A stretch of DNA of 64,000 bases, taken from positions 62,001-126,000 of the forward strand of contig JAFAWY010000034.1 of NCBI GenBank assembly GCA_019241525.1, given 5' to 3'. The first letter of the stretch is position 1. The number at the start of each line of letters is the position of its first letter. Position numbers and translations under genes: made by a program. Positions 28,619 through 40,817 of this stretch are shown here, piece by piece. The notes under the pieces were generated by a model, which saw only the letters and a program-made list of their open reading frames with translations, did no database searches and had not been told where the DNA came from. The DNA is from Pseudonocardiales bacterium (GTDB lineage: Bacteria; Actinomycetota; Actinomycetes; Mycobacteriales; Pseudonocardiaceae).

Positions 28619-29122
28619 GTGTATCAGCAGCCATTCCAGGGCACATCTATGACCTGGGTGTTTGACGATGGGTCAAGAACTGACGGAAGAGGCCAGGCGT
28701 CCATGGTCACGGTTGATGATGCCCGCTGGCTTGCCGATCATCTGCGCAGACTTGTATCGTTGCGGCCTGCCGCCTGGGCGCGCAGCGAGTTGACCCTGGC
28801 CCAACTGATCGCGCTGCACTTCATCAGCGCACGGGCCCCGATCACCTTGATCGCACTGTCCGAGTCCTTGGGTATCCGACCGCCGGCCACCTCCGCGATG
28901 GTTGATCGACTCGCGCGGGCCGGACTGGTCTGCCGCATGCCGGACCCGCAAGACCGCCGACGAGTCCTGCTGGCTGTAACAAGCAATGCGGTCACAATGA
29001 TCGGCAAGATCGACCTGCAGACGGCACGACGCGTGCAGGTGGTACTTAACAGCATGGGTACGGCCGCCCAGCGCTGCCTCACCGAGGTCGTCAAGGACAC
29101 AGCGCGTCGCCTCACCTGCTAA
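28619..29122 (+). CDS. MarR family transcriptional regulator, tandem copy 1
   Basis: LTLAQLIALHFISARAPITLIALSESLGIRPPATSAMVDRLARAGLVCRMPDPQDRRRVLLAVT. Confidence 0.88.
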   Translation: MYQQPFQGTSMTWVFDDGSRTDGRGQASMVTVDDARWLADHLRRLVSLRPAAWARSELTLAQLIALHFISARAPITLIALSESLGIRPPATSAMVDRLARAGLVCRMPDPQDRRRVLLAVTSNAVTMIGKIDLQTARRVQVVLNSMGTAAQRCLTEVVKDTARRLTC

Positions 29123-29304
29123 CCATTCGCGCCGTACGAACGATCTCCACACTGCAGCTTGGCCGTTTGCTGCCGGACGTGCTGTGGGCTGAGTCACTGT
29201 CCGGCGCTCGCTTGTTCAGTTTGATTGCTTACGGGAACTACGGTGAGAACGGATTGCCTCTGGCATCGGCCACCGGTGAGTGTGGTGTCGGTTCAGGAGA
29301 TCAC

Positions 29305-29832
29305 ATGGAGACTGGTCATCAGTGCTCGCAACCCACAGCTGACCCCAGCTACGTTTCCCTAGACCGACCCAATGCTTTCTCCCGCACTAGTGAAACGGTG
29401 GCGGCCTCCGACGCAGCCGTGGTCACCACGGAAGATGTCGATTGGCTCGTGAGGCGACTACAAGCGATGGCCATGGCCAGCCCGACTGTCTGGGCGGGCC
29501 GCGGTATGACGTTGCTCCAGCTCATCGCGCTGCACTTCATTCATGCGCTAGCGCCGGCCACCGTCACCGATGTGGCGCAGGCCCTGAACACCAAGCTACC
29601 GGCTACCTCCGCCATGGTCGATCGACTGGTTCAGATCGGGTTGGTGTCGCGTACGCCCGACCCGCGAGATCGGCGACGTGTCCAGCTGACGACCACCGCC
29701 GCCGCCCAACCAATAGTCGAAGACACCGACGTCAACACCGCCAGACGCCTTATGGCCGTGCTCCACAGCATGAGCACACAGACCCGGCGGCCACTCATCG
29801 ACATCCTGATCGACACCGTACGGCGCTTTTAG
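29305..29832 (+). CDS. MarR family transcriptional regulator, tandem copy 2
   Basis: MTLLQLIALHFIHALAPATVTDVAQALNTKLPATSAMVDRLVQIGLVSRTPDPRDRRRVQLTT; paralogous to the preceding CDS. Confidence 0.88.
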   Translation: METGHQCSQPTADPSYVSLDRPNAFSRTSETVAASDAAVVTTEDVDWLVRRLQAMAMASPTVWAGRGMTLLQLIALHFIHALAPATVTDVAQALNTKLPATSAMVDRLVQIGLVSRTPDPRDRRRVQLTTTAAAQPIVEDTDVNTARRLMAVLHSMSTQTRRPLIDILIDTVRRF

Positions 29833-30088: not shown

Positions 30089-31168
30089 TCAACGGGAGGT
30101 GTTGCCGGATTCCTGGAAGCCCGGCTCGGATGAAGGGTCGATCTCGAACGGACGCATGTTCCCGGTCACGGTGTTGTCGATTACTGCGCAGTCGGTGGAT
30201 CCTTCGGTGAGCATGACCGCGCGATCACCGGGCCCAGAGAAGTGGTTGCTGCGTACGACGACGCCAGGAAAGTTCCGTAACAAGACGGCTTGGGCACCGT
30301 TGACCGCGCAGGTGTTGCCATCAAAGACGATCGCCGGCTGTCCGGCTGGCGCACCCCGGGCACCATGGCCGTCCGTGGTAGCAATCAGGCACTGAACGTC
30401 AACATTGGTGCAGATGTTGTCGGCGATGACGACGTCGTAGGTTGGCGGAGCATCACCGGTGTCATAGGTCTGAAAGCAGTCGGTGTGCGGACCCCCGTGG
30501 GGATAGCCGGCCGCCTTGATGTCCTTGATCGTGTTTCCGGTCAACCGGTGACCCCACCCAAAAAATCGGATCCCGTCGGCGTCACCCTGAGTGCGCAGCA
30601 CCGAGTCGCTGACTGTGTTGTTCCGCAGGGTGATCCGTTGACCAGAAATCCAGATTCCAGTCCCATCGGCACGCTGGACGATGTTCGACTCGATGATCGT
30701 GTCCACGCAGTCCCGGCATGCCACGCCATCTTCGGTGGCGTTATAGACCACATTGTTGCGGGCGACGAGTCCGCGACCGGTCATGGTCAGACCATCCCCA
30801 TCTTCTAGCGCCAGGCCCTGGATGACGACGTAGTCAGCCTGGACGTTTATGCTGCGCATCCTCGCGCCATCAGAGACAATCTTGATCGGTTGCTGAGATG
30901 TTCCCGAAGTCCTCACCTCGAGTTCGGCGTCGGTGAGACCGTCGCCGCTCAGGCACACGATTCCGCCGGGTTGGACTTGTTGCAGTGCTGCGCTGGCTTG
31001 CTGGGGTTCGGTGACCCGGTTGACGCACTCCGCGGGAAGTGGACCCGACGGAGGTGAAGGGGGCGGACCGCCGGCCGGGGGAGGGCCAGGGGCCTGCGCA
31101 CAACCACTGATGATCAGCATCAGACCGATCATCGTGGTGAACAGGCCAATGATGGGTCGGGAGCTCAC
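30089..31168 (-). CDS. right-handed parallel beta-helix repeat lipoprotein
   Basis: Lipobox LMLIISGCAQ; repeats GLVARNNVVYNATEDGV, IIESNIVQRADGTGIWISGQ, ITLRNNTVSDSV, RLTGNTIKDI; RBS-like ggaggaagg before GTG 31168. Confidence 0.82.
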   Translation of the reverse strand: MSSRPIIGLFTTMIGLMLIISGCAQAPGPPPAGGPPPSPPSGPLPAECVNRVTEPQQASAALQQVQPGGIVCLSGDGLTDAELEVRTSGTSQQPIKIVSDGARMRSINVQADYVVIQGLALEDGDGLTMTGRGLVARNNVVYNATEDGVACRDCVDTIIESNIVQRADGTGIWISGQRITLRNNTVSDSVLRTQGDADGIRFFGWGHRLTGNTIKDIKAAGYPHGGPHTDCFQTYDTGDAPPTYDVVIADNICTNVDVQCLIATTDGHGARGAPAGQPAIVFDGNTCAVNGAQAVLLRNFPGVVVRSNHFSGPGDRAVMLTEGSTDCAVIDNTVTGNMRPFEIDPSSEPGFQESGNTSR

Positions 31169-31346
31169 TGCCTTCCTCCGTTCCGCGTGCCAAAAGGCCG
31201 CCCCTCTTGCTCGGCTACTGCCATGGTCACGGCGTTGACGGATCGTTGCAGCCGCTGGCTCGGTCAAGTGCGCTGACGCTCTTAGCGCACAGCGGACCGA
31301 TGCTGGCGAGGACAGCCATTGGGCGCACAGTGTGGGAGTGTTTGAG

Positions 31347-32945
31347 TTATGAGGCTTTGTCCCTTCGTCGCGTCGTGGTGGCCCAGAAGACGATGGCGTA
31401 AACACCAAGCGCCACGCTGGCACCCAGCGTTAAGGTGACGAAGCTGCCGAGCTGGTTACGGCTGACGAGGTGATCCAGCCACCACACTGCAGCAGCTACC
31501 GGCACCATCGCGGCCGTGGCTGCTACTGCCCCGGCGAGGGTTCTGACCTCGATGGGTTGCTCCTGCGGGACGACCTGGCGCAATCGAAACAGCACCAGTC
31601 CCCCAGCGGCGAGTTCACTGGCCAGGATTGCCACCACGAGCAAAACTAGGCGAGCGCCATTGGCGGGCAGGAGCAGGCTGGCGGCAGCGATCAGCAATGT
31701 TATGCCGAATGCGACTTCGCTGGCCCGCCGCGGAACGCGGTCGTCAAGGAGCGCGAATAGCGCCTGTCGACCGATATCGTGCACTCCTCCGACCAATTGG
31801 GCCACCGCCACCACAATCAGGCAGGTGGCGAGTGGACCGATCAGGGACCCATGACGCAATTCGCCGTGGGCAAGAATGTCGGCAGTGGGCCTGGAAAACA
31901 CTGCGAGCAACACCAGCAGCGGCAGGCTGGCGATGACGGCGTAAGACAACCCTTGGCGCCATGCCACGTTGAATTGGGTGCGATCCTCGTGATGGGCAGC
32001 GCGGGCGAGTCCGGGCAACGCGGCCATCGATACGGCGCGAGCGCTGATGTAGGACAGGGCGTAGAACACTGAGTAGGACAGTTGTATGACGAACACGCCG
32101 CCAGGGACCGAGCTGGCCAGTGCGAGCAATAGGTACATTGCTGCTGCCGGCCAGGCGGCTACGCCTACGGAGCGCATCATTCTGCGGATCACTGCGACTG
32201 CTTCGGAATCATGCCGCCAGCGTGTTGACGGGCGTGTCAGTAAACCCACGCGTGCCGCGCCGAACAATTGCAGTGCTGCGTGCAATGCCACAGCCGCAGT
32301 GCTGCCCAGCCCCAGTGCAACCACCAAATCGACGGGCACATGGGAGATGTCGAGTCCAGTGCCGTAGTACCAGCCAGCCAGCGTCACAGTCAGGATCAGG
32401 ATGATATTCTCCACGGCCGGTGCGCCTGCTGCCATCGCGAAGCGCCCGCGCGCCTGCTGGGCCGCCATGCCGAGGTATATCAGACAATATAGCAAAATTT
32501 GCGGTGCGACAATTAAGATGAGCAGTGTTGTGAATTGCAACCCTTGCGCCCGCTGCGCCGGGTTAGGAATCCCAAAGGTTAACGTCCAGGCCACCGCTGG
32601 AGCGGCGATCATTAATAATGCGACAACGGCGGACGAGACTGCAAGCAACCACCCGGTTACTCGGCCGAGCATTTGCTGGGCCCTGGCCAGGTCTCCGGCG
32701 CTGACGGCGCCGACCACGCCTGGCACCAGCACCATTGTCAGTACGGGTCCGGCGAGCAACGTGAAGACGATGTTCGGCACGATGTAGCCCGCCTGGAAGG
32801 AGTTGCCGAAATAGGTGGGCCCGAGTACTGCGCCGATGACGACCACTCGGAGCAGTCCGGTGGCTCGGCTGACCAGCGTCCAGCCGGCAACGGTCGCGGA
32901 GTTCCGTGCTGTGGCGGCAGAGGTTGCGTCTTCCAGCACGGTCAC
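31347..32945 (-). CDS. MurJ/MviN-type lipid-linked glycan flippase
   Basis: NSATVAGWTLVSRATGLLRVVVIGAVLGPTYFGNSFQAGYIVPNIVFTLLAGPVLTMVLVP; about a dozen hydrophobic segments. Confidence 0.82.
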   Translation of the reverse strand: MTVLEDATSAATARNSATVAGWTLVSRATGLLRVVVIGAVLGPTYFGNSFQAGYIVPNIVFTLLAGPVLTMVLVPGVVGAVSAGDLARAQQMLGRVTGWLLAVSSAVVALLMIAAPAVAWTLTFGIPNPAQRAQGLQFTTLLILIVAPQILLYCLIYLGMAAQQARGRFAMAAGAPAVENIILILTVTLAGWYYGTGLDISHVPVDLVVALGLGSTAAVALHAALQLFGAARVGLLTRPSTRWRHDSEAVAVIRRMMRSVGVAAWPAAAMYLLLALASSVPGGVFVIQLSYSVFYALSYISARAVSMAALPGLARAAHHEDRTQFNVAWRQGLSYAVIASLPLLVLLAVFSRPTADILAHGELRHGSLIGPLATCLIVVAVAQLVGGVHDIGRQALFALLDDRVPRRASEVAFGITLLIAAASLLLPANGARLVLLVVAILASELAAGGLVLFRLRQVVPQEQPIEVRTLAGAVAATAAMVPVAAAVWWLDHLVSRNQLGSFVTLTLGASVALGVYAIVFWATTTRRRDKAS

Positions 32946-33276
32946 CGGCCCATCCCTTCAAACCGGTAGCGCATATGAGGCGGTGCTGCGTCTGCGTAGC
33001 CACCGTAGCCGTACTGGGCCAAGGCGCAAGGAAGTCCGGCCACATGCCCATATCAGGTAGTTGGCAGGCGTGCGTGGGCCCACAGCTGCTGAGTGGCCAG
33101 AACGGTTTATATCGTCGCTGTCCATACGGCGGCGTTCCTCGCGCTCGGTTGTCTTATGTGGCCACGCCGGCCGGCAGGGCAGCAAGTAATCCACGCGGTG
33201 CGCATTGCTGCTTAATTCATTTGCACCTGTGTGGTGTAGAAGAGTCACTCGCTTGGCCTCCACGTCCATCCGCTGC

Positions 33277-34488
33277 TTACCGATGGCCACTCTGGAGAAG
33301 CTTCTCCCGTTGATGCCCGCGCAAGCCCCTCTTTGCCATGCCTAACGATCGACGCAGGTTCCGCAGTATGGTGATCTGGGTAGCCAAGTGGAGTGGATAA
33401 CGCCAGAGGGGAGAATGCCCTCGACGTTTCCATAGCGAGTACGAAAATTGGGTGATGTTCTGGTTGATGTGGTGTGGGACATCCTCGAACCACTTGGCGC
33501 TGTTCAACGCCTCGCGTTGCATGGCAAGCAGCGCGGCGCGTCGATTGTTCTGATATCCAGCAAGTGTCATCGTGAGGTTTTTGTGTTCCTCCAGCTTCTC
33601 GGCGAGAGCGATCGCGTCCCCCATCGCCAGTGTGGTGCCTGAGCCAATCGTAAAATGTGTCGTATGCGCAGCGTCGCCCATAAGAGCCACGTTATTATAG
33701 TACCAATTATTGTTGTTAACGCGTTTGAAGTTGAGCCACCGCGCCTTACCTATGCCCCCCCGAGACTCGTTGATCAATGAATGGTTACCTAGATGGCGCT
33801 CGAAAATTTTTTCCAAAAGTTTGACCGCCTGGTCCGATTCGAGTGAGTTAAAGCCGAGTCCGACCCAGGTCTCTGGTGGGCACTCGACAATCAGAGTGCT
33901 AGTGTGCGCGTCAAAGCGGTAAGCGTGGAACCATATCCAGCCGGCAGCCGTCTCTTCGAATGCAAAAGTAAAAGAATCGAAGATCCGTTGTGTGCCCAAC
34001 CAGATATACTTATTACGTCCGATCTCGATGTCAGTTTCAAGGTGGTCTGAATGCAATTGCCGCATCAGGCTATTGATACCGTCGCATGCGACGACCAAGT
34101 CTGCATTCGCGAAGTCCGAGACATCCTGGACCGCGCGTTCGAACTGGACATCGATATCGAGCCCCTTCGCCCGCTCTACCAAAACGTCGAGCAGGCGTTG
34201 ACGATCGAGACTGTAACCATATCCACCAAGATAGGCCGTATGCTCACCATGAACGTGCACTTCTTGGCCACCCCACGTGACGGAAGAGTCGCGTATCTGC
34301 CGAGCGCTGACGGGGTCGTTGCGGTAAAGCTCATCAAGTAAATCGTCCCAGAACACGACACCCCAGCCATACGTCACTCCGGCCGGATTGCGTTCGACAA
34401 CGGTGACATTATGATTTTTACTGCGCAACTTCGCCGAGATGGCGAAGTACAGACCAGCAGGTCCACCCCCCACGCACACGACTTTCAT
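33277..34488 (-). CDS. FAD-dependent monooxygenase, salicylyl-CoA/anthraniloyl-CoA hydroxylase-like
   Basis: MKVVCVGGGPAGLYFAISAKL, VTYGWGVVFWDDLL, VACDGINSLMR, VALMGDAAHTTHFTIGSGTTLAMGDAIALAEKL. Confidence 0.82.
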   Translation of the reverse strand: MKVVCVGGGPAGLYFAISAKLRSKNHNVTVVERNPAGVTYGWGVVFWDDLLDELYRNDPVSARQIRDSSVTWGGQEVHVHGEHTAYLGGYGYSLDRQRLLDVLVERAKGLDIDVQFERAVQDVSDFANADLVVACDGINSLMRQLHSDHLETDIEIGRNKYIWLGTQRIFDSFTFAFEETAAGWIWFHAYRFDAHTSTLIVECPPETWVGLGFNSLESDQAVKLLEKIFERHLGNHSLINESRGGIGKARWLNFKRVNNNNWYYNNVALMGDAAHTTHFTIGSGTTLAMGDAIALAEKLEEHKNLTMTLAGYQNNRRAALLAMQREALNSAKWFEDVPHHINQNITQFSYSLWKRRGHSPLWRYPLHLATQITILRNLRRSLGMAKRGLRGHQREKLLQSGHR

Positions 34489-34532
34489 GTCATCACACGC
34501 CCGTCTATTGCTCCCGATTCAGACAGATCACC

Positions 34533-35507
34533 TCACGCGCGGAGTAGGTATAGCGACGGCATGCCGCAGCGCTGGATTGAGGTACCAAGGGTCGCCAGCA
34601 TGACCTCAACAGTGAGGCAGTCCACGTCGCAGTGCATGGCCAGGCCTCGACGGGCAAGTTCGGTGGCCAGCTGTTGTTGATGATTATCGACCTGTTCGCC
34701 ATACGCGCTATCCCGGGGAGTCAGGACCGGATACCGTCCGGCCTCCAAAGCGGCCAATGCTGACCCGGTGCCTGCATGGCTAATGACGATATCTGCCCGC
34801 GCCAGCTCAGCGGACAGCTCGGCGGCGGGCAGCAACGGCGTCGGCTGGATCGGTAGATCCGCAACGTGTGTTTCACCTGTCTGCCACAACACCTGCACCG
34901 GCAGCCCGGTGGTCTGCGCCAGCACACCGTCGGGCGCCAGCAGCGGCGCCAGATGCCCAAACAAGCGACGAAACGGATACTGCGTGGCGCATCCTGACAT
35001 GACCACCACCCGAAGCACCGTCCCAGGCGCCCGGGCCACGGCAACCGGTTCATACCCGTCGAACACGCTTCCTGCGTAGCCCCACCGCCGACTCGACCAA
35101 CCCAAGTATTGGGTATAGGTCCGCACACCAGGCACCCACTGCAGGATCTGCCCGGTCAGCGATGGGGCGTGCACTCGGGCCGCGCTCTCGATGTAGTGGC
35201 ACATCACCCCCCGGAAAGCCAGATACGGCAGGTACCCCAGTGCGATCCCCGCCCCTGTCGATACCGCTCTGGTCAGCTTCCGTTGCTTCATCAACCGATG
35301 TGCATGGGGTACACACCGAAGCACATCCGGGAGGCTGCGCACACCCACGTAGGGCACGAACTCCACGTCTCGACCCGCCAACATCGACCGGCTTTGCTGA
35401 TCCGCGTGGGTCACCCACACCGAATCACCGTCGTGTGGGATCCGATCGGCAAGGCGGTCCAACTCGGCAAGATGGCCACCCGTGGCGGCAAGGAAAAGCG
35501 TGGTCAT
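34533..35507 (-). CDS. glycosyltransferase with fused Alg14-like and Alg13-like modules
   Basis: MTTLFLAATGGHLAELDRLADRIPHDGDSVWVT (Alg14-like); ADIVISHAGTGSALAALEAGRYPVLTPRDSAYGEQVDNHQQQLATELARRG (Alg13/GT28-like). Confidence 0.78.
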   Translation of the reverse strand: MTTLFLAATGGHLAELDRLADRIPHDGDSVWVTHADQQSRSMLAGRDVEFVPYVGVRSLPDVLRCVPHAHRLMKQRKLTRAVSTGAGIALGYLPYLAFRGVMCHYIESAARVHAPSLTGQILQWVPGVRTYTQYLGWSSRRWGYAGSVFDGYEPVAVARAPGTVLRVVVMSGCATQYPFRRLFGHLAPLLAPDGVLAQTTGLPVQVLWQTGETHVADLPIQPTPLLPAAELSAELARADIVISHAGTGSALAALEAGRYPVLTPRDSAYGEQVDNHQQQLATELARRGLAMHCDVDCLTVEVMLATLGTSIQRCGMPSLYLLRA

Positions 35508-36148
35508 GTGGCCTTCCCCCTCCACGAACCTGTGCCGTAGCGGGTTGGTCGCCGACCTGGCGGCTTGTTCAGCAAAGTACTTGGCAAACGTCGTTCGATC
35601 ACGCCTAAGCCATCCTGTCACCACTAAGGGTGACAGCAACCGCCCCGCACCGAATTCATCGCAAGGGACGCTCATGATCAAATTAACGGCCACTGACCGG
35701 GCGTCCATGATGGCGTCCGCAGACCGCGATGGTGACGCATCGTCACCAGACTCGGCAGTGAGAACTCTTTAAAAGACTCGAGTCGCCTAGCGCGTCGCAT
35801 CTAACTTCGCGGAAGCGACGGATAACTCCAAGCTTGTACAGCCGCTAATCGATATTCTTATGGCGGCTCAGTGCAGCCACCGCTTAATTAGGCCGCTTTG
35901 ATTCGCCCACTCAAAGGCCCCAACCAAAAGCCGAATCATTTATGGACCTGCCGGAGTCCGGCGCACGACTGATTTTAAGGGCAAAGTGTTCGCGAGGCCG
36001 TTGTGATATGCGCCCCGGCTATCTAGTATCAGAAATGGACGAATTTGTCCGATCGTCTCCACTTGGATGCATTGGCTCGTGCCCGTCCTTCTGTCGCGCC
36101 GGGCTGCGGCCGAGCCATCGACGAACGTGGATCCCTCTCCAAGAGTGG

Positions 36149-36928
36149 TCAGCCGTCGGCCCAATCTAACCAGGGCTTGGTATCGAGGTAGTGGCGGACT
36201 TGGTAGACGTAGTGCTCGGATTCAGGGTCTTTCCAGTCCCCGGAAAAATGCCAGCCCACGCAACCCCAGATATCGCCGGGGTTATATGTATTATCCAGGT
36301 AGCTGATCCACCCCTCATAGCAGCTACGAATTAGTGCCCCGTAATAGTCAACGTTGAACGAGGTGCTCTGCTGCGACAGTGGATAGGAACCGGGTTTGGT
36401 TAGATGCTTGAGTTGCATGATTCCGAAGCTCGTCGGGCACGGAGGGATGTCGCCGCCGACACAGTCAGCCGGATTGCCGGATTCGTCAGAAACAGTGCTC
36501 TGTCGCCAGTCGCTCTCCTGGATGGCCACTGCCCGTAACAGATCGGCATCCAAACCCCACTTGCAGGCTCCCCAGGCTAAAATCGCGTCCGTAGTGCCGG
36601 TAAACTTGCCGTCGATGCGAGGAACAAACTGCTGATTGGCCTGCTCGGCAAAATCGTCCCAAGCGGGCAGCGCCACCCCGTCAGGGACGAAGTGATTCGC
36701 TTGGGTGTTCTCCGGTCGCGGCTCCCATTGATCCCCCCGGACTCGCGCGGCACATTCAGTACCTGAGGGAAGCGTTGCGCCTACCGGAAGCGCGAGACCG
36801 TTCTGTTCGCCGCCTTCTCTCGAAGTGATCGGCGTACACGCGCTCATGGTGAACAACAAAATAAACGCAATGGTGATGCTGCGCCGTGGCGAGGAAGGTC
36901 TGACCTCCGCCCGCTTGGACCGGCTCAA
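36149..36928 (-). CDS. lipoprotein with SLT/lysozyme-like fold
   Basis: Lipobox-like LLFTMSAC; WGLDADLLRAVAIQESDWRQSTVSDES...PTSFGIMQLKHLTKPGSYPLSQQSTSFNVDYYGALIRSCYEG. Confidence 0.68.
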   Translation of the reverse strand: MSRSKRAEVRPSSPRRSITIAFILLFTMSACTPITSREGGEQNGLALPVGATLPSGTECAARVRGDQWEPRPENTQANHFVPDGVALPAWDDFAEQANQQFVPRIDGKFTGTTDAILAWGACKWGLDADLLRAVAIQESDWRQSTVSDESGNPADCVGGDIPPCPTSFGIMQLKHLTKPGSYPLSQQSTSFNVDYYGALIRSCYEGWISYLDNTYNPGDIWGCVGWHFSGDWKDPESEHYVYQVRHYLDTKPWLDWADG

Positions 36929-37514: not shown

Positions 37515-38957
37515 ATGGACGCTGCGGTCGTGCAGACCTGTGCGGGGAAGGTTCGTGGCCTGGCTCTGGGCGGCGTCGTCAGCTTCCGGGGGATTCCTTT
37601 TGCCGCCGCACCGGAGGGGCTGCTGCGCTTCCAGCTCCCCGTTCCTGTGGATGCCTGGGACGGGATCAGGGATGCCACTGCATTCGGTGCCGCGCCGCCG
37701 CAGTTGCCCCCAGCACCTGGGATGCCCGCGATCTGGCGGCCCCGCGATGGTCTGGACTGCCTGACGGTCAACGTCTGGACCCCCGAGCCCGGTGCCACCG
37801 GGCTACCGGTCATGGTCTGGATTTACGGCGGTGCATGGAAGACCGGTTCGTCCAGCAACCCCAGTTATGACGCCACAAAGCTGGCCCGCTACGGCGTGGT
37901 GGTCGTCACCTTCAACTACCGTGTCGGTTTTGAGGGGTTCGGACAACTGCCTGGGATGCCGGCCAACCGCGGGCTGCATGACCAGATCGCGGCGCTGGAC
38001 TGGGTGCAGCACAACATCACCGCCTTCGGCGGCGATCCCAGCGCCGTCACCATTTTCGGTGAGTCTGCAGGCGCGGGCTCGGTTGCCCTGCTCGTCGCCG
38101 CGCCGAGCACCCGAGGCCTGTTTCGGCGGGCGATCGCCCAAAGCATCCCCGCTGGCTTACTCACCCCCGGCGAGGCCGAGCGCGTCACCGCAGTACTGGC
38201 CACGCAGGCACAAGTACCTCCCACCTCGGAGGGTTTCGCTGCGCTGGCACCTGAAGCCATCTTGCCGATCCAGGATGCGCCGCTGCGGGAGACCGAGGCA
38301 CGCATCAGCGCCTTCGGTCCGGTCATCGACGGAGAACTAGTCACCAGCCCGCCCTGGAAGGCAATCAATAAAGATACCGGCCGAGATATCGAGCTGATCT
38401 GCGGCTTCACCCATGACGAATGCCGGCTGTTCACTGAAAACCGTGATTTGTCGGCTATCGATCTGGCGGCAGCGGCGACCTCATTGCACCTGGGACACGA
38501 CGCGGTCGCGGCTTACCACGCCGCCTATCCGGACAACACCGACGCCGAGCTATTCACGGTCATGCTCTCTGACGCGCTGTTCCGAATGCCCAGCACCTGG
38601 ATGGCCGAAGCACACGCGCACGCCGGCGGCCGTACCTGGCTTTATGACTTCACCTGGCCAAGCCCCCTACTCGGCGCCTGCCACGCCCTCGACGTGCCCT
38701 TTACCTTCGGCAATGCCAACACCCCGTTGGCGGCCAGGCTGGTGGGCTGCCCACCACCCCCCGATTTCATCGCCCTGGCCGAGCGCATCCAGCAAGCCTG
38801 GACCACCTTCGCCTGCACCGGTGACCCAGGCTGGCCACGCTTTGCCCTCCCACACCGCCACACCCGGATCTGGAATATTCCGCCTTCCACCACTGCCTAT
38901 CCGCTCACTGCCTCCCGCCGCATCTGGGAAAAACAAATGCCGCACCTTGTCTGGTAA
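37515..38957 (+). CDS. type B carboxylesterase/lipase family protein
   Basis: GKVRGLALGGVVSFRGIPFAAAPEG, DCLTVNVWTP, VTIFGESAGAGSVALLV. Confidence 0.92.
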   Translation: MDAAVVQTCAGKVRGLALGGVVSFRGIPFAAAPEGLLRFQLPVPVDAWDGIRDATAFGAAPPQLPPAPGMPAIWRPRDGLDCLTVNVWTPEPGATGLPVMVWIYGGAWKTGSSSNPSYDATKLARYGVVVVTFNYRVGFEGFGQLPGMPANRGLHDQIAALDWVQHNITAFGGDPSAVTIFGESAGAGSVALLVAAPSTRGLFRRAIAQSIPAGLLTPGEAERVTAVLATQAQVPPTSEGFAALAPEAILPIQDAPLRETEARISAFGPVIDGELVTSPPWKAINKDTGRDIELICGFTHDECRLFTENRDLSAIDLAAAATSLHLGHDAVAAYHAAYPDNTDAELFTVMLSDALFRMPSTWMAEAHAHAGGRTWLYDFTWPSPLLGACHALDVPFTFGNANTPLAARLVGCPPPPDFIALAERIQQAWTTFACTGDPGWPRFALPHRHTRIWNIPPSTTAYPLTASRRIWEKQMPHLVW

Positions 38958-39173
38958 CGCGGTGTGACAAACCTCCGTCTGGGCATCGCGGCGCAGCATC
39001 AGCACACCGCGATGAATCGGTGGCTACCTGACTGGCGGTTCCGACTCGCAGGAGGCAGCGAGATCGTGAGCGTCCGCGGCCTCCGCCTGAGGCTGCAGGG
39101 GATGACGGATGCAGCAGCGGGCTTCTGAGCGCGTTGCACCGGGCGTGCGGGCACTCGAAGCAGGAGAGACGTG

Positions 39174-40817
39174 ATGAGCTCCACGGATGTGTTGATCGTG
39201 GGAGCCGGACCGGTGGGACTCACCACGGCGATCGAGCTGCGCCGCCGCGGCGTGGAGTGCCGCGTAGTTGACCGGCTCACCACTCCGATGCCCTACGCCA
39301 AGGCGGTGGGGGTGCAGCCGCGCACTCTCGAGCTCTGGGAGTCGGCCGGCGTGCTGCGGCGTGCTCTCGACGGCGCTGTCCCGATGCGTGGGCAGATCGT
39401 CTACGTCGACGGTCAGCAGGTCTCGCGCATAGAGCTGGCGTTGCCGCCCGAAGTCCCTTACGGCTTCATCGCGCTGCCCCAGTATGAGACGGAACGGGTG
39501 CTGACCGAACGGCTCGCAGAGCTCGGCGGGCGGGTGGAACGGGGTGTAGAACTGGTCGGCTTCGACCAGGACGCTGAGGGCGTCACCGCGGTGCTGCGCG
39601 GGCCGGACGGGCAGTTCCGGGTGTGCGCCGGGTACCTGGTCGGCTGCGACGGCGCGCACAGCGCCGTCCGTAAGGGTCTGGGAGTGGCTTTCGCCGGCGA
39701 TGCGTTCCCCGAGCAGTACATGCTCGGAGATGTCGAGGTCGACTGGCGCCAGCCCCCGGGCTACGGCGTTCGGTGCACGCGCCGGGTCGAGAGTGGCCCC
39801 GACGACCTCCTGGTCGCGATCCCGCTGCCCGGCCGGCACCGCTACCGCATGTCCATGCTGGTGCCCGACGAGCTGGCGTCCGCGCCGTCAACTGGAACGA
39901 TGGAGCACGGTTTCGAATCGGGTCACAGCCCCCAACTGCAGCACGTGCAGGCCGTGCTCGACCGGCTTGCTCCCGAGCCGACCTGCGCGTCGAACCTGCG
40001 CTGGTCATCGGTCTTCCGGATCAGCCACCGAATCGTCGACTCCTACGGCCGGGGCCGGGTGTTCCTGGCCGGCGACGCCGCGCATATCCACCCACCGACC
40101 GGCGCGCAAGGCATGAACACCGGCATCCAGGACGCGGTTGCACTTGCCTGGCGCCTCGCACTCGCGGTACCAGGCCTGGCGGCCGAAGGACTGCTCGGCA
40201 GCTTCGACGCCGAGCGGCGGCCGGTGGGAGAAGAAGCGGTCAGCCGAACCGTCCGGCACGCCCGGGCAGGCTTCGAGGCCGACGAACCGGCGACGATGCT
40301 GCTGCGCGAGGCCCAGCTTCTCGTGGGCTACCCGGATAGTCCGTTGATCGGCGAGGGCAGCAACGTCGAGGCACTCAAGGGCGGCCCCCGGCCCGGTGAA
40401 CGGGCGCCGGATTGCGCACCGCTGCGCCGCGCCGGTGCCGCATTCCCACTACGGCTGCACGAGCTGCTCGACGGACGCCGCTTCGCGCTGCTGCTCTACG
40501 CCGACCACGCCGACCAGATCTCCGACCTTGCCTCTGCCTCGGCCGTCGCCCGCGAACGGGCCCACAGTCAGCTCGACGTGGTGTTCGTGCTCGCGGTCAC
40601 CGCCGCTGTTCCCGACGAGGTCGCCGACCGGCCGCTCGGTGACGCGCCAGCCGCGGTCGTGTGGGACCTAGCCGGCGAGTTCCAGGCCGCCTACGGCGCG
40701 ATAGGCGGATGCTGCCACCTGGTGCGCCCCGACCAGCACGTGTCGTTCCGGGCCGGACAAGCCCGCGCCGACGAGCTGGCGTGCCACCTGGCTCTGGTCT
40801 TCAGGCCGCCTTCTTAA
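39174..40817 (+). CDS. FAD-dependent aromatic-hydroxylase-like monooxygenase
   Basis: DVLIVGAGPVGLTTAIELRRRGVECRVVDR, GCDGAHSAVRKGLG, GRVFLAGDAAHIHPPTGAQGMNTGIQDAVALAWRLAL. Confidence 0.92.
   Translation: MSSTDVLIVGAGPVGLTTAIELRRRGVECRVVDRLTTPMPYAKAVGVQPRTLELWESAGVLRRALDGAVPMRGQIVYVDGQQVSRIELALPPEVPYGFIALPQYETERVLTERLAELGGRVERGVELVGFDQDAEGVTAVLRGPDGQFRVCAGYLVGCDGAHSAVRKGLGVAFAGDAFPEQYMLGDVEVDWRQPPGYGVRCTRRVESGPDDLLVAIPLPGRHRYRMSMLVPDELASAPSTGTMEHGFESGHSPQLQHVQAVLDRLAPEPTCASNLRWSSVFRISHRIVDSYGRGRVFLAGDAAHIHPPTGAQGMNTGIQDAVALAWRLALAVPGLAAEGLLGSFDAERRPVGEEAVSRTVRHARAGFEADEPATMLLREAQLLVGYPDSPLIGEGSNVEALKGGPRPGERAPDCAPLRRAGAAFPLRLHELLDGRRFALLLYADHADQISDLASASAVARERAHSQLDVVFVLAVTAAVPDEVADRPLGDAPAAVVWDLAGEFQAAYGAIGGCCHLVRPDQHVSFRAGQARADELACHLALVFRPPS

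What the first reader, a model, noticed from the sequence alone, without database searches (positions are those of the whole stretch)
30089..36928. Co-directional five-gene set that could form an undescribed envelope-glycan assembly/modification system
Read from the sequence: five consecutive minus-strand genes encode an SLT-like lipoprotein, a one-polypeptide Alg14/Alg13-type glycosyltransferase, a salicylyl-CoA-hydroxylase-like flavin monooxygenase, a MurJ/MviN-type flippase and a beta-helix lipoprotein. Established knowledge: Alg13/14-type enzymes extend lipid-linked sugars, MurJ/MviN proteins flip lipid-linked glycans, and beta-helix proteins are often polysaccharide lyases or epimerases. 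Inference: together they could build, flip and remodel a surface glycan. The flavin monooxygenase is not an obvious part of any such pathway I know.
Basis: partly seen in the sequence, partly recalled or inferred. Interest (0 to 1): 0.72.

Follow-up and report, generated by a model that had tools for sequence, protein, structure and literature searches.

The report
Partial second set of exopolysaccharide genes
Four of these five neighbouring genes are extra copies of, or recurrent neighbours of, genes that build and decorate a surface sugar coat in this soil actinobacterium; the full assembly line lies elsewhere in its genome, and the odd flavin enzyme turns out to be a recurring but unexplained part of such sugar-coat gene clusters.

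Summary
The five minus-strand genes are real and intact, but not one operon: gaps are 641, 44, 331 and 178 bp, and the arrangement occurs in none of 10 congeneric genomes. The organism is an uncultured Pseudonocardiaceae-type actinobacterium. The glycosyltransferase (GT) and MurJ-like flippase are diverged paralogues of two genes of a conserved Wzx/Wzy-type exopolysaccharide (EPS) locus. That locus (3-amino-sugar enzymes, Wzz, MurJ-like flippase, probable Wzy, polyprenyl glycosylphosphotransferase, FemAB/GNAT, GT) is intact in the same genome on another contig. In Pseudonocardia acidicola four of the five window families (MurJ-like, GT, beta-helix, flavin monooxygenase) lie in one EPS locus of about 11 kb. 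The flavin monooxygenase is therefore not foreign: of 79 related loci, 21 have it directly beside a BioF2/FemAB-type GNAT; all 11 loci with EPS genes are among these 21. They include nine Actinoplanes-type clusters that match the published wps-3 cluster. The SLT lipoprotein has no such link. Best reading: an EPS satellite that supplies a second flippase, GT and tailoring enzymes to the core machinery elsewhere. The enzyme's substrate, and whether the window set works as one unit, remain unproven. New variant of a known kind.

The parts
34533..35507 (-). Alg14/Alg13-type (PssD-PssE fused, WelK-like) glycosyltransferase, 324 aa; paralogue of the GT of the conserved EPS locus (own-genome copy G000:C40:28223-29188)
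   Evidence: NCBIfam WelK 1e-25, PssD/PssE 1e-12 to 1e-13; 70-74% to EPS GTs of all 11 genomes searched in the genus; tree places it beside, not within, the EPS GTs of the genus
33277..34488 (-). Group A flavin monooxygenase, 403 aa, with intact GxGPAG and GDAAH motifs; nearest to the second of the tandem monooxygenases in the GNAT/GT4/acetyltransferase cluster of congeners
   Evidence: PRK08255 N-terminal half 7e-122, VioD 3e-58; PDB VioD 5e-40; alignment A1; tree; GC 54% against 62-64% for the GT, flippase and beta-helix genes
31347..32945 (-). MurJ-like MOP flippase, 532 aa, probably Wzx-type (not the lipid II flippase)
   Evidence: PF03023 2.5e-36; TIGR01695 124 bits against cut-off 235.6, while the genome's own MurJ (G000:C64) scores 254.6; 72-75% to the flippases of the EPS locus and of the FemAB-flippase-FemAB cassette in most congeners
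30089..31168 (-). Parallel beta-helix lipoprotein, 359 aa, lipobox I-S-G-C, with conserved DADG, HTDCFQT and NVDxQCLIAT motifs
   Evidence: PF13229 5e-15; AlphaFold2 pLDDT 88.6; fold matches to PL6 lyases, GH87 glucanases and tailspikes, TM up to 0.60; PL6 match of the N-terminal region at 2e-5
36149..36928 (-). SLT-like (lytic transglycosylase family) lipoprotein with an ES...SFGIMQ motif; neighbour, not judged part of the EPS set
   Evidence: SLT 2e-4, just under the cut-off; present in 4 of 11 genomes searched, elsewhere with unrelated neighbours

Best explanation
The window carries an EPS satellite: a second, rearranged and incomplete set of genes of a Wzx/Wzy-type exopolysaccharide pathway. 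Proposed working: the core enzymes encoded elsewhere (G000:C40: Gfo/Idh plus DegT making a 3-amino sugar, polyprenyl glycosylphosphotransferase, Wzz, probable Wzy) start a lipid-linked repeat unit. The window GT adds a sugar, perhaps glucuronic acid as its WelK/PssDE relatives do. The window MurJ-like protein flips the altered unit in place of the core flippase. The flavin monooxygenase hydroxylates an acyl or aminoacyl group that a BioF2/FemAB-type GNAT puts on the amino sugar; such GNATs lie beside this enzyme in other genomes and are encoded elsewhere in this one. The beta-helix lipoprotein binds, cleaves or epimerises the polymer outside the cell. Shown here: gene identities, paralogy to the EPS locus, co-location of four families in one EPS locus of another genus, purifying selection, and the recurrent GNAT-monooxygenase-EPS link. 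Inferred: cooperation with the C40 locus, donor sugar, monooxygenase substrate and beta-helix activity. The SLT lipoprotein is probably an unrelated neighbour.
For: The GT and MurJ-like homologues lie in one conserved EPS operon in the genus; all 11 genomes searched (own genome included) hold the GT, and the operon was read in full in eight and in part in three. Both window copies branch at similar depth beside the genus copies, as if acquired or duplicated together. Pseudonocardia acidicola (L149/L220) has Gfo-DegT-Wzz-deacetylase-MurJ-like(57%)-C6-PGT-GT(61%)-FemAB, then convergent beta-helix(52%)-monooxygenase(58%)-GNAT. G027 has the EPS operon with a GNAT and its only beta-helix homologue, 6.2 kb beyond its only GT. 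Monooxygenase loci: 21 of 79 are GNAT-adjacent; all 11 with EPS markers are among those 21, none among the other 58. A. missouriensis wps-3 lists Wzx, Wzy, Wzz, DegT, deacetylase, BioF2-GNAT, monooxygenase and GNAT (PMC13390465), the same order as in L204. dN far below dS for all five.
Against: Within the genus the beta-helix and monooxygenase genes are not next to the EPS operon; each gene sits in its own setting there. No GNAT lies in the five-gene set. The monooxygenase has lower GC (54%) and a different nearest relative, which suggests a separate arrival. Spacing gives no sign of one operon. The window is a MAG contig. Nine of the 11 EPS-linked monooxygenase loci are one lineage (Actinoplanes and kin), so independent support comes from about three lineages.
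Confidence: 0.5

Rival explanations
1. Chance neighbours: single genes of multi-copy families (MurJ-like, beta-helix, monooxygenase) and one GT paralogue landed side by side in a patchwork accessory region and do not act together.
For: No congener shares the 20-kb block around the finding; homologues of its pieces are scattered over other contigs. MurJ-like genes have up to 5 matches per genome, beta-helix 1-8, monooxygenase up to 5. GC and tree positions differ for the monooxygenase. Intergenic gaps are wide.
Against: Four families that co-locate in one EPS locus of another genus meet again here; the GT is otherwise single-copy per genome, so meeting a MurJ-like and a beta-helix gene within 5 kb by chance is unlikely.
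Confidence: 0.33
2. One reading: all five genes, the SLT lipoprotein included, form one dedicated operon that builds, flips and remodels its own glycan.
For: Co-direction; 44 bp between GT and monooxygenase.
Against: No polyprenyl glycosylphosphotransferase, Wzy or Wzz in the set; SLT has no EPS link elsewhere; the arrangement is not conserved.
Confidence: 0.06
3. The flavin monooxygenase is a catabolic salicylyl-CoA 5-hydroxylase unrelated to glycans.
For: Best NCBIfam match is the N-terminal half of PRK08255.
Against: 408 bits against an equivalog cut-off of 1078, and only half the model is covered; no salicylate or gentisate genes next to it; the nearest relatives sit in a GNAT-GT4-acetyltransferase-methyltransferase cluster. 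Other branches sit beside ABC exporters or other genes.
Confidence: 0.1

Closest known systems
Wzx/Wzy-dependent exopolysaccharide clusters, in particular wps-3 of Actinoplanes missouriensis (AMIS_58080-58180; PMC13390465)
   Same: DegT, Wzz, Wzx, Wzy, deacetylase, BioF2-type GNAT and a monooxygenase whose counterparts in nine Actinoplanes-type loci are of the window's family (47-54% identity)
   Different: The window set lacks core genes and GNAT; its flippase is MurJ-like, whereas the wps-3-type flippase (L204) had no Pfam hit; it adds a WelK/PssDE-type GT and a beta-helix lipoprotein. The published wps-3 deletion left sporangia normal and gave no function for the monooxygenase
Lipid II flippase MurJ
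   Same: MOP-superfamily membrane protein matching PF03023 over nearly its whole length
   Different: Scores about half the MurJ equivalog cut-off; the genome has its own MurJ elsewhere; relatives sit in EPS operons or between FemAB-like genes
WelK beta-1,4-glucuronosyltransferase (sphingan synthesis) and PssD/PssE, Cps14F/G
   Same: Single-chain Alg14+Alg13 layout, matching the WelK model nearly end to end (1e-25)
   Different: 90 bits against a cut-off of 400, so the donor sugar is not established
VioD and salicylyl-CoA 5-hydroxylase (group A flavin monooxygenases)
   Same: Fold family and motifs; best PDB match VioD (5e-40)
   Different: Below both equivalog cut-offs; genomic setting is glycan decoration, not violacein or salicylate
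PL6 polysaccharide lyases and other parallel beta-helix polysaccharide enzymes
   Same: Parallel beta-helix fold, and the N-terminal region matches PL6
   Different: TM at most 0.60, about 10-15% identity; PL6 catalytic residues were not traced

Membership tests
Wzx/Wzy-dependent EPS pathway (window five-gene set alone) | Initiating polyprenyl glycosylphosphotransferase, Wzy and Wzz present with a flippase | tested here: not met
   None among the five genes, and tblastn with the congeners' genes found no remnant in window 24-45 kb
Wzx/Wzy-dependent EPS pathway (G000:C40 locus of the same genome) | PGT, Wzz, flippase and polymerase together | tested here: inconclusive
   PGT, Wzz and flippase met: Bac_transf 2e-60, Wzz 4e-5 (just under its cut-off) and MurJ-like in congener L055, with orthologues in L047/L048. 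The polymerase is only inferred: helical membrane protein without a Pfam hit and with a low-confidence model
MurJ lipid II flippase (equivalog) | TIGR01695 score at or above 235.55 | tested here: not met
   124 bits; canonical MurJ elsewhere in the genome at 254.6
WelK glucuronosyltransferase | NF046028 score at or above 400 | tested here: not met
   90.5 bits
Salicylyl-CoA 5-hydroxylase PRK08255 | Two-domain protein scoring at or above 1078 | tested here: not met
   407.9 bits, N-terminal half only
Group A flavin monooxygenase | N-terminal GxGPAG, DG and GD motifs in one FAD-binding domain | tested here: met
   MKVVCVGGGPAGLYFA, ACDG and LMGDAAH in the alignment; FAD_binding_3 8e-16
Lytic transglycosylase (SLT) | PF01464 at its cut-off with catalytic Glu and GxMQ motif | tested here: inconclusive
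   21.2 bits against 21.3; ES and SFGIMQ present
PL6 polysaccharide lyase | Parallel beta-helix with Ca-binding acids and catalytic Lys/Arg | tested here: inconclusive
   Fold met; catalytic residues not traced onto the model
Operon | Co-transcription of the five genes | not testable with these tools
   Needs RNA; spacing 641/44/331/178 bp

The most novel reading that the evidence does not exclude
Actinobacteria share an undescribed decoration module, a flavin monooxygenase paired with a BioF2/FemAB-type GNAT, that oxidises an acyl or aminoacyl substituent of an exopolysaccharide amino sugar; the window is a satellite where the monooxygenase joins a spare flippase, GT and beta-helix enzyme to switch the coat to a variant form.
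Probability: 0.25. Interest if true: 0.65.

Novelty: new variant of a known kind. Interest (0 to 1): 0.42.

Why it matters
It places an otherwise puzzling flavin monooxygenase in exopolysaccharide decoration across several actinobacterial lineages, gives the MurJ-like paralogues of Pseudonocardiaceae a likely job as Wzx-type flippases, and shows how EPS genes can scatter into satellites. If the monooxygenase does act on a GNAT-installed group, it would be a glycan modification chemistry that can be tested directly by deleting one gene in a culturable Actinoplanes or Pseudonocardia.

Tried and rejected
SLT as part of the set: rejected, since it is in 4 of 11 genomes and none of its other loci is near EPS genes. 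The 66-residue N-terminal extension of the GT and the overlapping start of the beta-helix gene: rejected against relatives and the ribosome site. Remnants of PGT, Wzy, Wzz or FemAB in the window: none found. Synteny of the 20-kb block in congeners: none. Structure of the probable Wzy: pLDDT 45.7, unusable beyond showing many helices; no PDB match. Fold searches of the beta-helix model gave the general fold only. A beta-helix frame taken from L216 was wrong (27% identity) and dropped. Papers: nothing found on the combination MviN/EPS/FemAB/FAD enzyme; salicylyl-CoA hydroxylase papers were off topic.
Full report
Observation. Corrected anatomy, in transcription order: SLT-like lipoprotein 36149-36928; 641 bp; GT 34533-35507; 44 bp; flavin monooxygenase 33277-34488; 331 bp; MurJ-like flippase 31347-32945; 178 bp; beta-helix lipoprotein 30089-31168. 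Against their nearest relatives all five show dN of 0.16-0.23 and dS of 0.86-1.83, so they are functional genes rather than debris. Promoter- and terminator-like patterns do not exceed chance. Whether they form one transcript is open.

Organism. Relatives found by name are Pseudonocardiales/Pseudonocardiaceae MAGs; that they are soil organisms is an inference. The window is interior to a 128-kb contig of a 4.7-Mb assembly.

Conserved home of the GT and flippase. The GT occurs in all 11 genomes searched in the genus, the own genome included, and in 15 of 201 genomes of the family. In the genus it ends a conserved operon: FA desaturase, Gfo/Idh, DegT aminotransferase, Wzz, MurJ-like flippase, a membrane protein without Pfam hit (C6), polyprenyl glycosylphosphotransferase, C3, FemAB/GNAT, GT. 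The own genome has this operon on contig C40 (L047/L048). In this operon the MurJ-like protein is the only flippase found, so it is the likely Wzx (inference). C6 is probably Wzy: it is polytopic, with an LESGYL-type motif, and lies where Wzy would be expected; but its structure model is poor and Pfam is silent. Gfo/Idh plus DegT points to a 3-amino sugar; this follows from family knowledge (GnnA/GnnB, WbpB/WbpE) and was not tested.

The window copies. Trees put the window GT beside all genus EPS GTs and the window flippase at the base of the genus flippases, apart from both the EPS clade and a second clade in which the flippase lies between FemAB-like genes. That cassette occurs in 10 of 11 genomes, with the FemAB-like gene on both sides in nine. 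The window pair is thus an old paralogue pair or was acquired from a close relative. The monooxygenase belongs with the second tandem monooxygenase of three congeners, at 70-73% identity, and has GC 54% against 62-64% for the GT, flippase and beta-helix genes. The beta-helix protein pairs with one homologue in G002 at 67-69%.

Do the families belong together? In the congeners they do not sit together: none has the window arrangement and the 20-kb block is not syntenic. One congener (G004) has the beta-helix gene beside the FemAB-flippase-FemAB cassette. Outside the genus the picture changes. Pseudonocardia acidicola has a complete EPS operon followed at once by beta-helix, monooxygenase and FemAB-like GNAT, so four of the five window families lie within about 11 kb. 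In G027 the only GT and the only beta-helix homologue of a 6.1-Mb genome are 6.2 kb apart, with the GNAT between them and UDP-glucose-dehydrogenase-type genes nearby. G023 has a beta-helix homologue but no GT.

The flavin monooxygenase. In eight of the 11 genomes its relatives lie in a cluster with a GNAT/FemAB protein, GT4, hexapeptide acetyltransferase and a methyltransferase; in some genomes the contig ends before all of these are seen. Among 79 loci from public genomes, 21 have the monooxygenase within 600 bp of a BioF2/FemAB-type GNAT. Eleven have EPS markers, and all eleven are among those 21. Nine of the eleven are Actinoplanes-type and match wps-3 of A. missouriensis in gene order (PMC13390465), where Wzx, Wzy, Wzz, DegT, deacetylase, BioF2-type GNAT and FAD monooxygenase were annotated and the cluster deletion left sporangia normal. 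The others are a Mycobacterium MAG and P. acidicola. Loci without GNAT (Nocardia, Streptomyces, Saccharopolyspora, myxobacteria) show no EPS genes, and eight have an ABC exporter beside the enzyme. Because nine loci are one lineage, the independent support is about three lineages.

Mechanism. Shown: families, paralogy, co-location in other genomes, selection. Inferred: that the window genes act with the C40 core, that the flippase moves a variant repeat unit, that the GT uses a uronic acid donor (WelK-like, but far below that model's cut-off), that the monooxygenase oxidises a group installed by a GNAT, and that the beta-helix lipoprotein acts on the polymer. The beta-helix fold is confidently predicted (pLDDT 88.6), with PL6-like sequence in its N-terminal region and fold matches to polysaccharide lyases, glucanases and tailspikes at TM up to 0.60. 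That supports a polysaccharide-facing role but no particular activity.

Verdict. The main gain is the recurrent GNAT-monooxygenase-EPS link.

Noticed in passing
L018-L024, L026, L030, L031, L115, L117, L126-L131 (congeners): A MurJ-like flippase flanked by FemAB/GNAT genes on one or both sides is a conserved cassette in 10 of 11 genomes of the genus, separate from the EPS operon.
   Followed up: partly
L119-L123, L134, L062: Conserved cluster of methyltransferase, hexapeptide acetyltransferase, GT4, one or two flavin monooxygenases and a FemAB-like GNAT next to keto-acid dehydrogenase E1/E2 genes; probably a second glycoconjugate locus.
   Followed up: partly
L156, L157, L163, L164, L186, L195, L202, L213: Another branch of the same monooxygenase family sits directly beside an ABC exporter gene; four-base overlap in L103 and L164.
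   Followed up: partly
A4 alignment; L069-L086: Beta-helix lipoprotein family with 1-8 copies per genome and strongly conserved DADG, HxDCFQT and NVDxQCLIAT motifs, matched only by general beta-helix Pfam families.
   Followed up: partly
L047:16308-17786 and orthologues: Conserved 490-550-residue membrane protein of the EPS operon without Pfam or NCBIfam hit, likely an undescribed Wzy family; a second operon protein of about 216 residues (C3) is also without hits.
   Followed up: partly
window 28619-29832: Two tandem MarR-family regulators just downstream of the beta-helix gene, on the opposite strand.
   Followed up: no
window 37515-40817: Carboxylesterase followed by a large RdmE/DnrF-like FAD monooxygenase, unrelated to the finding.
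   Followed up: no
L050, L061: A further MurJ-like copy sits near a 1240-1326-residue fused double ABC transporter and MarR regulators in two genomes.
   Followed up: no
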